A stretch of DNA of 64,000 bases. It comes from Kocuria salsicia. Lineage in GTDB: Bacteria > Actinomycetota > Actinomycetes > Actinomycetales > Micrococcaceae. This document shows positions 16,966 through 54,827 of this stretch, piece by piece (the stretch's first letter is position 1; each line of letters opens with the position of its first letter). The notes beneath the pieces are model-generated. The model ran no database searches and was not told the DNA's origin. It worked only from the letters and a program-made list of their open reading frames with translations. Where the stretch lies: the NCBI RefSeq assembly GCF_007681555.1, contig NZ_VELE01000002.1:248001-312000 (forward strand), read 5' to 3'. The position numbers and the translations under genes were made by a program.

Positions 16966-17766
16966 TCAGTCGCTCATCGACCGGATGATCGTCAGCAGAC
17001 GCAGGATCTCCACGTAGGTCCAGATCAGGGTCACGGTCAGGCCGAACGCCGCAGACCAGGCAGCCTTCTGGGGGATGCCGCGCCTCACGCCGTCGCTGAT
17101 GTTCTCGAAGTCCAGTACGAAGCTGTAGACGGCCAGCAGGATCGCGATGGCACCCACGAAGAGCCCCAGCGGAATGCCGAAGACGGAGACGTCGGTGCGC
17201 AGGTTGAAGCCGCCCAGCAGCGAGGTGCCCAGGTTCACGAGGGCGAAGATGGCGTAGGCCATCATGGCCACGAAGAAGAACTTGGTCACTCGCGGGGTCG
17301 CGCGCAGCACGCCCGTCTTGTAGAGCACGAGGACCGAGACGAAGACCGCCAGGGTGCCGATGACCGCCTGCACCACCACGCCCGGGTAGGTGCTCTCGAA
17401 CATGCCCGAGATGCCGCCGAGGAACAGGCCCTCCGCGAGCGCGTACAGGATGATGAGCACGGGGCTGGGTTCCCGCTTGAACGAGTTCACCAGACCGAGG
17501 ACGAGGCCCACGATGGCACCGGGAACCGCGAGGACGGGCACAAACCAGCCCGCGAAGGCGGCCACGACCACGCAGCCGAGCACGAGCGAAGTGCGCATTA
17601 CGACGTCGTCGTAGCTCATGCGCCCGGTCTGGGCGGGCCCGGCGGCGGGCGCGTTGTACATCCGCTCGAGCTGCTCGGGCGAGTACTGGGCACCCTGGGG
17701 TGATGCGGGTACGGTGGTGGCGTTCTTCTTGTTGAAGTCTCGCAGGAGGGGGTTGCCGCCGGCCAT
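16966..17766 (-). CDS. Bax inhibitor-1/YccA family membrane protein
   Basis: 266 aa with a soluble N-terminal tail of about 55 residues and seven hydrophobic segments. It belongs to the TMBIM/YbhL group, several of which are pH-dependent calcium leak channels or modulate membrane protein quality control. Recognisable segments include ALAEGLFLGGISGMFE and LIWTYVEILRLLTIIRSMSD at the C-terminus, whose late Asp resembles the pH-sensing aspartates of the family. It starts at ATG 17766 with GAAAGGACG upstream. The tRNA gene lies 145 bases upstream on the same strand. Confidence 0.92.
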   Translation of the reverse strand: MAGGNPLLRDFNKKNATTVPASPQGAQYSPEQLERMYNAPAAGPAQTGRMSYDDVVMRTSLVLGCVVVAAFAGWFVPVLAVPGAIVGLVLGLVNSFKREPSPVLIILYALAEGLFLGGISGMFESTYPGVVVQAVIGTLAVFVSVLVLYKTGVLRATPRVTKFFFVAMMAYAIFALVNLGTSLLGGFNLRTDVSVFGIPLGLFVGAIAILLAVYSFVLDFENISDGVRRGIPQKAAWSAAFGLTVTLIWTYVEILRLLTIIRSMSD

Positions 17767-17911: not shown

Positions 17912-17985
17912 TGCCCCCAGTGGGATTCGAACCCACACTGAGCGGATTTTAAGTCCGCTGCCTCTGCCGGTTGGGCTATGGGGGC
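17912..17985 (-). tRNA. tRNA with UAA anticodon (reads leucine TTA), short variable loop
   Basis: 74 nt, no encoded CCA. Read on the minus strand: acceptor GCCCCCA/TGGGGGC, discriminator A73, D stem GCC/GGC with GG in the loop, anticodon stem GCGGA/TCCGC, loop CTTAAAA, T arm GTGGG-TTCGAAT-CCCAC. The variable region is only five bases (TCAGT). Bacterial tRNA-Leu normally has a long variable arm, so this is a class I body with a leucine anticodon. The anticodon arm and A73 agree with tRNA-Leu(UAA). See the findings. Confidence 0.95.
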
Positions 17986-17990
17986 GGGTA

Positions 17991-18032
17991 CGACGACGGT
18001 GGGGCCGCCCGCAGGCGGCCCCACCGTCGTCG
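17991..18032 (-). terminator. ndh terminator, 19-bp perfect stem
   Basis: Arms at 17991-18009 and 18014-18032 are exact reverse complements, starting CGACGACGGTGGGG; the tetraloop is CGCA. It starts 9 bases after the ndh stop and directly precedes the tRNA on the same strand. Confidence 0.9.
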
Positions 18033-18041
18033 ACGTGCAGG

Positions 18042-19445
18042 CTACAGGCTGGCCTTGGCGTCCGAGACCTTCACGCCGGCGGCTTTCTCGAAGGCCCGGC
18101 GCGGATCGCGCAGGTGGCGCAGCGGCTGGGTGTCCCGCCCGAAGACCATGTTCAGGCCCCACTGGGTGAACACGCGTGCCTTGCGGTCCACCGTGGGGAT
18201 CGCATAGCCGTGGTACAGACGGTGCATGAGCCACGCAGGCAGTCCGCCGAGGTCGATGTTGCGCACCGTGGCGGCACCCTTGTACAGGCCCAGTCCGGCC
18301 ACGGAGCCGAGGCCCTCGTGATAGTAGTCCTGCAGGGGCTCGCCCTGGTGGGCGGCCATGATGTTCTTGGCCATCCTGGCTGCCTGGCGGACCGCGTGCT
18401 GGGCGTTCGGCACGCAGAAGCCCCCCGGGCCGGCACCGGTGAGGTCCGGGACGGCGGCGATGTCGCCGGCGGCCCAGGCGCCGTCGAAGGGCCCGTCGTC
18501 GCCGGTGACGCGCAGGTCTGCGCCCACGCGCAGGCGGCCGCGCTCGTCGATGGGGAAATCGCTGTTCTTGATGAAGGACGCGGCGGCCACGCCGGCGCAC
18601 CAGATCAGGGTGTCCGTGGCGAGCTCGCCGGCGGGCGACTTGTCACCCATGTTGATGAGCTTGACGACGTCCCCGTCTACCTCGGACACGGACGTGTTCA
18701 GGAGCACCTCGACGCCGCGGGAGCGCAGCTCGGCCACGACCTTCTCAGCGCGGTCCTTGGAGACCTCGGGCATGATCCGTCCCATGGCCTCGATCATCAC
18801 GAAGCGCAGGTCCGAGACCTTCAGGCGGTCGTTGCGCTCCACAGCGGTACGTGCCATGTCCTCGAGCTCGGCAATGGTCTCGATGCCGGCGAAGCCGCCG
18901 CCCACGACCACGAACGTCAGCGCCTGGCGCTTGGCGTCCTCGTCGTCGGTGAGGGACGCCACCTCGATGCGCTCGAGCATCCAGTTGCGCACGGAGACGG
19001 CCTCTTCGATCGTCTTCATGCCGATGGCCTTCTCCGCGAGCCCCGGGATGGGGAACGTGCGGGTGTTGGAGCCGCCGGCCACCACGATCTCGTCGTAGGG
19101 CAGCTCGAACTCGGGACCCTCGTCGATGCCGCGGATGGTGACCTTGCGGTTGGCGTGGTCGATGTTCTCCACGCGGCCGGCGATCAACTCGCAGTCCCGC
19201 AGGTTCTGGCGGTGGGGAACCGTGGCGGAGCGCGCCTCAATGTTCCCGGCCGCGACCTCGGGGAGGAAGGGAAGGTAGGTCATGTACGGGTTGGGGTCCA
19301 CCACGGTGACCACGCCGCCGGACTCCTTGATACGGGTCTGCAGCTTCTGCGCGACGGTGAAACCGACGTACCCGCCACCCACGATGAGAAGGCGCGGACG
19401 GTCCTTGGCAAGTTGATTGAAAGACATGCCTGGAAGTTTACTCAT
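18042..19445 (-). CDS. ndh: Type II NADH dehydrogenase (FAD-dependent, non-proton-pumping)
   Basis: 467 aa. Oxidises NADH and reduces menaquinone at the cytoplasmic face of the membrane without pumping protons. Two dinucleotide folds are visible: LLIVGGGYVGFTVAQKL for FAD near residue 20 and TFVVVGGGFAGIETIAEL for NADH near residue 178. The second FAD motif DGAWAAGDIAAVPD follows. The C-terminal amphipathic region (WLMHRLYHGYAIPTV) is the expected membrane anchor. The ATG at 19445 is preceded by a GTG at 19448, giving equivalent starts. Single gene, ended by a 19-bp hairpin. Confidence 0.93.
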   Translation of the reverse strand: MSKLPGMSFNQLAKDRPRLLIVGGGYVGFTVAQKLQTRIKESGGVVTVVDPNPYMTYLPFLPEVAAGNIEARSATVPHRQNLRDCELIAGRVENIDHANRKVTIRGIDEGPEFELPYDEIVVAGGSNTRTFPIPGLAEKAIGMKTIEEAVSVRNWMLERIEVASLTDDEDAKRQALTFVVVGGGFAGIETIAELEDMARTAVERNDRLKVSDLRFVMIEAMGRIMPEVSKDRAEKVVAELRSRGVEVLLNTSVSEVDGDVVKLINMGDKSPAGELATDTLIWCAGVAAASFIKNSDFPIDERGRLRVGADLRVTGDDGPFDGAWAAGDIAAVPDLTGAGPGGFCVPNAQHAVRQAARMAKNIMAAHQGEPLQDYYHEGLGSVAGLGLYKGAATVRNIDLGGLPAWLMHRLYHGYAIPTVDRKARVFTQWGLNMVFGRDTQPLRHLRDPRRAFEKAAGVKVSDAKASL

Positions 19446-19535
19446 CACCGGGAACTTTTGCTCACGCCCTGCCGTACGGTGACGGCCTTGCAGGGTGCTC
19501 CGGAGGGTGCTCCACGCGGGTGGCGCACCGGCGTC

Positions 19536-54233: not shown

Positions 54234-54827
54234 CTACGGCCGCGCCCCAGGGGCCTGCGCGCCGTCGTGCTCACGCGCCAGGCGTGCCAGCGTGCTCACG
54301 AGCAGCTCCCGCTCCGCGGCCTTGATGCGCTCGTGCAGCTCGCCCTCGGTGTCCTGCTCGGCGACGGGCACAGCCACCTGGGCGAGGACCGGTCCGGCGT
54401 CCACGTCCGCGACGACCTCGTGGACCGTGGCACCCGTGATCTTCACCCCGTAGGCCAGGGCGTCGCGCACCGCGTGGGCACCGGGGAAGGAGGGCAGCAG
54501 CGAGGGGTGCGTGTTCACGATCAGGCCGGGGAACGCGGCCACGAACTCGGCGTCCACGATCCGCATGAACCCCGCGAAGACCACGCGGTCCGGGTGGTGG
54601 GACGCCACAGCACGCTGCAGTGCGCGGTTCCAGTCCGCGCGGTCGACGTGCTCGCCGGGCGGGACGACGAACGTCGCGATGCCGGCGGACTCCGCGCGCT
54701 CCAGTCCCTGGCAGGGCTTGTCCGCGCCCACCGCGACGATCTCCACCGGTTCCTCCCCCGCGTGCAGGGCGTCGAGCATCGCCTGCAGGTTGGTGCCGGA
54801 GCCTGAAACGAGAACCACTAAGCGCAT
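54234..54827 (-). CDS. purN: Phosphoribosylglycinamide formyltransferase
   Basis: 197 aa. Transfers a formyl group from 10-formyl-tetrahydrofolate to GAR in purine synthesis. VLVSGSGTNLQAMLDAL is the N-terminal strand-loop, NTHPSLLPSFPGAHAVRDAL contains the catalytic Asn and His, and GATVHEVVADVDAGPVLAQ contains the catalytic Asp. Divergent from an unknown membrane protein gene 86 bases away. Confidence 0.96.
   Translation of the reverse strand: MRLVVLVSGSGTNLQAMLDALHAGEEPVEIVAVGADKPCQGLERAESAGIATFVVPPGEHVDRADWNRALQRAVASHHPDRVVFAGFMRIVDAEFVAAFPGLIVNTHPSLLPSFPGAHAVRDALAYGVKITGATVHEVVADVDAGPVLAQVAVPVAEQDTEGELHERIKAAERELLVSTLARLAREHDGAQAPGARP

What the first reader, a model, noticed from the sequence alone, without database searches (positions are those of the whole stretch)
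17912..17985. Leucine UAA anticodon on a tRNA body with a short (class I) variable loop
The sequence folds as a complete cloverleaf with anticodon UAA, A73 and a leucine-like anticodon arm, but only five bases between anticodon and T stems. Bacterial tRNA-Leu normally carries a long variable arm. In a genome of this GC content TTA codons should be very rare, so the tRNA may be a specialised or regulatory decoder, as bldA is in Streptomyces, or a lineage variant of tRNA-Leu. It may be widespread in relatives, in which case it is unusual but not new.
Basis: partly seen in the sequence, partly recalled or inferred. Interest (0 to 1): 0.55.

Follow-up and report, generated by a model that had tools for sequence, protein, structure and literature searches.

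The report
Leucine tRNA missing its long arm
This bacterium reads its rarest leucine codon (UUA) with a leucine tRNA that lacks the long side arm described as typical of leucine tRNAs; the short form is usual in its relatives, sits where Streptomyces-like genomes keep the developmental tRNA bldA, and has switched between short and long arm many times.

Summary
Minus strand 17985-17912 is a sound tRNA with anticodon UAA and a 5-base variable loop (TCAGT). It is the only UAA tRNA among 45 tRNA hits in a 99.96% complete genome; the other four tRNA-Leu are long-armed. It keeps the bases reported to be needed by E. coli LeuRS (A73, A14, A15-U48, G18G19, A20a); none of the genome's other short-loop tRNAs has the whole set.

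It is not a specialised newcomer. The short form is the usual tRNA-Leu(UAA) of the order and of much of the class. It lies between an NDH-2-like gene and a Bax-inhibitor gene, a site shared across the class, and long-armed UAA tRNAs of Streptomyces-like genomes (bldA) and others lie at the same site. The forms have exchanged at least 9-10 times on an rpoB tree, at a fixed site in two distant groups. Short-armed tRNA-Leu of several anticodons are also common in phages and tRNA arrays.

TTA is the rarest codon, but most of the few real ones lie in ordinary genes (purN, thrB, nucS-like), so housekeeping decoding is likelier than bldA-like regulation. Charging was not tested. My searches found no paper describing this. 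Verdict: real, standard in its lineage, a new variant of a known kind.

The parts
17912..17985 (-). tRNA-Leu(UAA) with a 5-nt (class I) variable loop; reads 17985 to 17912
   Evidence: ARAGORN, Rfam RF00005 63.2 bits, only UAA tRNA of the genome, LeuRS identity bases kept
17937..17941 (-). variable loop TCAGT, ending in U48, the partner of A15
   Evidence: Position parse of the ARAGORN call and the sequence
17960..17976 (-). D region GCCCAACCGGCAGAGGC, carrying A14, A15, G18, G19 and A20a
   Evidence: Position parse and the sequence
18042..19448 (-). upstream neighbour: NDH-2-like NAD(P)/FAD-dependent oxidoreductase, part of the conserved site
   Evidence: ORF; tblastn hits beside the tRNA in relatives; product name from similar records
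16966..17766 (-). downstream neighbour: Bax inhibitor-1/YccA family gene, part of the conserved site
   Evidence: ORF; tblastn hits beside the tRNA in relatives; product name from a similar record
17988..18034 (-). strong hairpin between the NDH stop codon and the tRNA, ending 2 bases before the tRNA
   Evidence: RNA fold -48.8 kcal/mol, z -6.7, 0 of 200 shuffles as low; no T run

Best explanation
This is the cell's working tRNA-Leu(UAA) and its only reader of UUA. It is charged by the single ordinary leucyl-tRNA synthetase through A73, A14, the A15-U48 pair, G18G19 and A20a, all of which it keeps; the long variable arm is not needed by the bacterial enzyme. It is the ortholog, by chromosomal position, of the long-armed UAA tRNA (bldA) of Streptomyces-like genomes. 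In its ancestors the long-armed gene became short-armed at the same site, with coupled changes in the tRNA core (base 9 from G to A, base 13 to C), and such switches happened repeatedly in the phylum. Shown here: structure, uniqueness in the genome, conserved bases, shared site, repeated switching. Inferred: leucylation, decoding, and the direction of each switch.
For: Sole UAA tRNA. Identity bases: among distinct class I UAA tRNAs of Actinomycetota loci A14A15 89 of 89, U48 89 of 89, A73 87 of 89; the review PMC9976931 (section 12) says these and not the long arm matter for E. coli LeuRS. One ordinary LeuRS of 836 aa; both LeuRS forms of relatives occur with both arm classes. Shared site NDH-tRNA-Bax for class I and class II genes, and a second shared site in family f25. 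10 class changes, 9 forced by starred branches, on an rpoB tree of 57 genomes. TTA sites in purN and thrB align with Leu in the best PDB match.
Against: No charging or expression data. Only two TTA sites could be checked by alignment. Some lineages (Mycobacteriaceae-like, Bifidobacteriaceae-like, one of 7 Streptomyces-like loci) show neither neighbour within about 5 kb. No promoter-like site was found near the gene in this genome. Phage tRNAs share the same core signature, so an outside source of the core is not excluded.
Confidence: 0.82

Rival explanations
1. Domesticated phage-type tRNA: the class I core came from the mobile class I tRNA-Leu family of phages and tRNA arrays, by gene conversion or replacement at the host's UAA gene, rather than by stepwise loss of the arm.
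For: Class I tRNA-Leu with the same core and several anticodons in phages of seven host genera looked at; at least 120 viral contigs with the class I UAA signature; an 18-tRNA cluster with class I Leu-UAA in a genome whose own UAA gene is class II; the core changes as a block (base 9, base 13 and loop together).
Against: The host gene stays at one site across the class. The window tRNA's nearest matches outside D region and loop are cellular (0.979 against 0.936 for the best viral one). 74 bases cannot root the family.
Confidence: 0.25
2. bldA-like regulatory decoder: the tRNA is limiting or growth-regulated and its few target genes form a regulon.
For: TTA is the rarest codon (11 of 126,223); same site as the Streptomyces-like UAA gene.
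Against: 3 of the 4 TTA codons judged real lie in ordinary genes: purN, thrB, nucS-like. PMC4255298 (passages) says that bldA's developmental role may not extend beyond Streptomycineae. Expression was not measured.
Confidence: 0.1
3. UUA is read as another amino acid, the short-armed tRNA being charged by a synthetase other than LeuRS.
For: The body is not class II, and its anticodon arm resembles that of tRNA-Lys of the same genome (GGACTTTTAATCC against GGACTTAAAATCC).
Against: The complete leucine identity set is kept; the TTA site of purN aligns with Leu, Ile and Val and that of thrB with Leu in the matches shown.
Confidence: 0.03
4. Pseudo-tRNA or unexpressed relic.
For: No promoter-like site found near the gene.
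Against: Sound pairing and 63.2 bits, conserved across the class, and no other tRNA of the genome has this anticodon although TTA codons are used.
Confidence: 0.02

Closest known systems
bldA, tRNA-Leu(UAA) of Streptomyces
   Same: Anticodon, decoding of the rarest codon in a GC-rich genome, and chromosomal site: 6 of 7 Streptomyces-like loci have the Bax gene downstream on the same strand.
   Different: bldA-type genes are class II with G9; this one is class I with A9. No sign of a developmental regulon; TTA occurs in ordinary genes.
Ordinary class II bacterial tRNA-Leu(UAA)
   Same: A73, A14, A15-U48, G18G19, A20a and anticodon.
   Different: Variable loop of 5 nt instead of about 11-18; base 9 is A, base 13 is C.
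Animal mitochondrial tRNA-Leu(UUR)
   Same: Leucine tRNA without a long variable arm, identity set by A73 and A14 (PMC9976931, passage).
   Different: Organellar, with a floppy anticodon stem in the human case; here the stem is fully paired and the gene bacterial.
Class I tRNA-Leu of phages and tRNA arrays
   Same: Same core signature (A9, CCAAYYGGCAGAG, CAGT-type loop). PMC6582537 (passage) reports a cluster-borne tRNA-Leu(TAG) with a short variable loop in mycobacteria.
   Different: Mobile and of several anticodons; here it is the only chromosomal UAA gene, at a stable site.

Membership tests
Bacterial tRNA-Leu (LeuRS substrate) | A73, A14, A15-U48, G18G19 and A20a | tested here: met
   for the bases; for why they matter (E. 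coli)
Bacterial tRNA-Leu (LeuRS substrate) | Leucine anticodon | tested here: met
   UAA
Bacterial tRNA-Leu (LeuRS substrate) | Charged with leucine | not testable with these tools
   TTA sites in purN and thrB align with Leu in the best PDB match, which is indirect
Class II tRNA-Leu | Long variable arm (10 or more nt) | tested here: not met
   5 nt, TCAGT
bldA ortholog | Same chromosomal site as the Streptomyces-like UAA tRNA | tested here: met
   Bax gene downstream on the same strand in both; the Streptomyces name of f21 is inferred
bldA ortholog | Regulatory role through TTA in developmental genes | tested here: inconclusive
   TTA in purN, thrB and nucS-like genes speaks against it; only 464 kb examined and no expression data
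Phage-type class I tRNA-Leu | Shared core signature (A9, C13, CCAAYYGGCAGAG, U48, 5-6-nt loop) | tested here: met
Phage-type class I tRNA-Leu | Descent from a phage gene | tested here: inconclusive
   Nearest matches outside D region and loop are cellular by a small margin; 74 nt cannot root it

The most novel reading that the evidence does not exclude
The architecture of an essential tRNA (class I or class II) is evolutionarily reversible. In Actinomycetota the tRNA-Leu(UAA) gene has flipped between short- and long-armed forms about ten times, in part at one fixed site, including a return to the long arm in a Bifidobacteriaceae-like family. The partners of these flips are a phage- and array-borne family of short-armed tRNA-Leu that covers several leucine anticodons, so phages have reshaped the host's core decoding set.
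Probability: 0.3. Interest if true: 0.72.

Novelty: new variant of a known kind. Interest (0 to 1): 0.5.

Why it matters
The papers read here list the long variable arm as a class trait of tRNA-Leu (PMC7609411 passages; PMC9976931 section 12). Here a large part of a phylum lives with a leucine tRNA without it, in a single-copy role, and related genomes hold both forms at the same site. That gives natural pairs for testing what the arm does for LeuRS, for keeping leucine apart from serine, and for decoding, and whether bldA's regulatory habit depends on its long arm. It also warns that annotation which judges isotype by arm class may misjudge these genes.

Tried and rejected
Pseudo-tRNA, non-leucine identity and regulatory decoder were weighed and set low (see rivals). 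A dedicated LeuRS was looked for and rejected. Among 58 chosen genomes, 55 gave a match (26 of 29, 29 of 29): one LeuRS form matches that of G000 over its length (46-74% identical), another only in its middle part (about residues 150-600, 45-51%), and each form occurs with class I and with class II tRNAs.

Loss of the tRNA in the 59 of 297 genomes without a match in the order survey was considered and not upheld. One of them, G044, has a class I UAA tRNA whose T loop (TTCGAAC) my pattern excluded. re-searched 23 of the 59 with a flawed pattern and showed class I UAA-like hits in some; the rest were not examined further.

One search had one N too few and found 5-nt loops only by using its one mismatch. 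Class counts from these three calls are not used as frequencies.

The tRNA sequences alone were not used for a tree: 74 bases cannot resolve it. The phage-to-host direction stays open.

Full report
What is there. On the minus strand at 17985-17912 lies a complete tRNA gene: ARAGORN reads tRNA-Leu with anticodon TAA and Rfam's tRNA model scores 63.2 bits. The variable loop is five bases (TCAGT). The genome (G000, 3.06 Mb in 50 contigs, 99.96% complete) has 45 tRNA hits. I read them with ARAGORN: Leu CAA, GAG, CAG and TAG each occur once with a long arm, and TAA once, here. A search with the tRNA's own DNA finds one copy. So the gene is the only reader of UUA; tRNA-Leu(CAA) is expected to read UUG only (established knowledge).

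Whose body is it? The D region GCCCAACCGGCAGAGGC has the size and layout of this genome's class II tRNA-Leu (GCGGAATTGGCAGACGC and similar): A14 A15, G18 G19, an extra A at 20a and a three-pair stem. Other class I tRNAs of the genome may have A15-U48 or A73, but only the Leu tRNAs have the whole set. Across the Actinomycetota loci fetched, distinct class I UAA tRNAs (loop of 7 nt or less; reads with a pairing score under 10 dropped) show A14A15 in 89 of 89, U48 in 89 of 89, A73 in 87 of 89, C13 in 89 of 89 and A9 in 80 of 89. Class II UAA tRNAs (which here include a few 8-9-nt loops) show A14A15 and U48 in 38 of 38, A73 in 37 of 38 and G9 in 35 of 38. The 6-nt-loop genes were tallied apart: among 69, A9 in 30 and G9 in 38, so A9 is not strict. 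A review of tRNA identity (PMC9976931, section 12 read in full) states that for E. coli LeuRS A73, the A15-U48 pair, G18G19 and A20a are crucial and the anticodon and long arm are not, and that truncated tRNAs without the arm remain active. The simplest mechanism is normal leucylation without the arm. It is inferred; no charging data exist here.

LeuRS. The own genome has one gene over the cut-off of the bacterial leuS family, of normal length, 836 aa. In chosen relatives (26 of 29 with a match, 29 of 29) two LeuRS forms occur, and each occurs with class I and with class II UAA tRNAs. The form matched only in its middle part occurs in class II Streptomyces-like and Bifidobacteriaceae-like genomes and in class I Mycobacteriaceae-like ones; the form of G000 occurs in class II G585, G598 and G590 and in class I G000, G005 and G717. 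No special synthetase goes with the short arm.

How common is it? In the order, 238 of 297 genomes match a pattern that allows both arm classes. The listing is cut off. In the listed rows nearly all matches have class I length; long-arm lengths are confined to families f4 and f3 (genus g30), apart from some chance-looking second matches and one 9-nt loop. A genome without a match (G044) proved to have a class I UAA tRNA missed by the pattern, so the share is a lower bound. In the class (173 of 246 matching) and phylum (243 of 296) samples, class I also occurs in Mycobacteriaceae-like, Pseudonocardiaceae-like and many other families, while f21/g96 (Streptomyces-like) is class II in all eight rows listed.

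Site. The window tRNA lies between an NDH-2-like gene (18042-19448, minus) and a Bax-inhibitor gene (16966-17766, minus) (product names from similar records). Of 191 fetched loci (40 of them pieces of about 280 bases that cannot hold a neighbour), 87 contain one or both neighbours by tblastn. Aligned pieces put Bax downstream on the same strand 54 times (median 375 bases) and NDH upstream on the same strand 18 times; other arrangements also occur, such as Bax upstream on the opposite strand 13 times. Named carriers include Micrococcus lylae (L236, nearest: NDH 57%, Bax 55% identical), Nocardioides, Knoellia, Curtobacterium and Clavibacter. Long-armed UAA genes lie at the same site: G585 has NDH, class II tRNA and Bax in order; G598 and G626 have Bax 150-450 bases downstream; G590 has NDH 68 bases upstream; 6 of 7 Streptomyces-like loci have Bax 0.35-2.5 kb downstream on the same strand. 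Not all agree: Mycobacteriaceae-like loci (L537, L538, L588, L589), one Streptomyces-like locus (L536), the Bifidobacteriaceae-like loci (L548, L549) and the f3/g30 locus (L550) show neither neighbour within about 5 kb. In a distant family (f25) G407 (class I) and G353 (class II) share at least four neighbours in the same order beside the tRNA. So the class changed without the gene moving, in at least two groups.

How often? An rpoB tree of 57 genomes (60 asked for; G470, G320 and G588 gave no rpoB hit) needs 10 changes of class, 9 forced by starred branches; shuffled labels average 16.6. The genomes were picked to include class II, so this is a count of switches among them, not a rate; it is a quick tree with some long branches. 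Direction: most class II genes have a GCCCGG-type acceptor. The class II genes of the Bifidobacteriaceae-like family f4 and of f3/g30 lie inside a class I clade of the tree. The f4 gene of G124 matches class I genes at 0.936 outside D region and loop, and class II genes of other families at 0.766 at best. A return to the long arm there is the best reading, but it is inference, and not uniform: two f4 genes (G226, G053) match each other better (0.936) than any class I gene (0.872).

Phages. A search of phage records (207 records at E 0.01, 117 covering 80% or more of the tRNA) led to short-loop tRNA-Leu in phages of Mycobacterium, Streptomyces, Pseudomonas, Sinorhizobium, Lactobacillus, Erwinia and Synechococcus, with anticodons TAA, TAG, CAA, GAG and AAG. 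Some viral short-loop tRNAs keep a class II-like D arm and GTTTT-type loops, a second kind. A Bifidobacteriaceae-like genome (G215) carries an 18-tRNA cluster with class I Leu-UAA beside its own class II gene. Whether hosts took the class I core from this pool is open: the window tRNA's nearest matches outside D region and loop are cellular (0.979), the best viral one 0.936.

Use. In 464 kb of the genome TTA is the rarest codon, 11 of 126,223 codons in 289 ORFs predicted by my own simple rule. By eye seven of the 11 lie in over-long starts or antisense stretches. The four I take as real are in purN (window 54234-54827, codon 3), a homoserine kinase, a NucS-like endonuclease and a membrane protein (gene names from PDB matches, the last by eye). 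In purN the TTA aligns with Leu in the best PDB match and with Ile or Val in the next two shown; in homoserine kinase with Leu in the matches shown; in NucS the alignment starts after the site. This fits ordinary leucine decoding and speaks against a purely developmental role. PMC4255298 (passages) says that bldA's developmental significance may not extend beyond Streptomycineae.

Print. Ten library searches found no paper that describes class I tRNA-Leu(UAA) as the rule in actinobacteria, its shared site with bldA, or a phage family of class I tRNA-Leu. Related statements seen: a short-loop cluster tRNA-Leu(TAG) in mycobacteria (PMC6582537, passage); M. tuberculosis tRNA-Leu-2, -3 and -5 named as having long loops (PMC11541572, passages); mitochondrial tRNA-Leu(UUR) without the arm (PMC9976931, passage); tRNA arrays shared by mycobacteria and phages, without a word on arm class in the passages seen (PMC5966550); and no mention in the passages seen of a review of odd tRNAs (PMC7609411) or of tRNAscan-SE 2.0 (PMC8450103). 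Subscription papers and tRNA databases were not searchable, so prior knowledge there is possible.

Noticed in passing
window 17988-18034 (minus strand): A strong hairpin (-48.8 kcal/mol, z -6.7) without a T run fills most of the gap between the NDH stop codon and the tRNA. Many relatives have a TAGRCT-like box just before the tRNA (by eye); here and in some others the hairpin abuts the tRNA, so it may be cut out of an NDH read-through transcript.
   Followed up: partly
L547 1-6500 (genome G215): A cluster of 18 tRNAs, including short-loop tRNA-Leu(UAA) and other 75-base tRNA-Leu, in a Bifidobacteriaceae-like genome whose own UAA gene is long-armed.
   Followed up: partly
L251, L257, L209 (contigs binned as Deinococcales, Cytophagales, Armatimonadetes): tRNA clusters of up to 23 genes hold short-loop tRNA-Leu for several anticodons, suggesting phage or mobile contigs inside these bins.
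   Followed up: no
genome G044, loci L746-L791: This relative has a short-loop tRNA-Leu(CAA) as well as a short-loop UAA, and no long-armed CAA was seen, so both UUR readers are short-armed.
   Followed up: no
L599-L654: Two clearly different LeuRS forms are scattered over actinobacterial genomes, without relation to the arm class of tRNA-Leu(UAA).
   Followed up: partly
viral loci such as L407, L460, L476, L498: A second kind of viral short-loop tRNA-Leu, with G9, a class II-like D arm and GTTTT or ATTTT loops, probably from independent arm losses.
   Followed up: no
L597 (G588), L142 (G286), G607: UAA tRNAs with class I-like cores but loops of 8-9 bases, possible intermediates between the classes.
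   Followed up: no
window 54234-54827 (minus strand): purN carries one of the genome's few real TTA codons at codon 3.
   Followed up: yes
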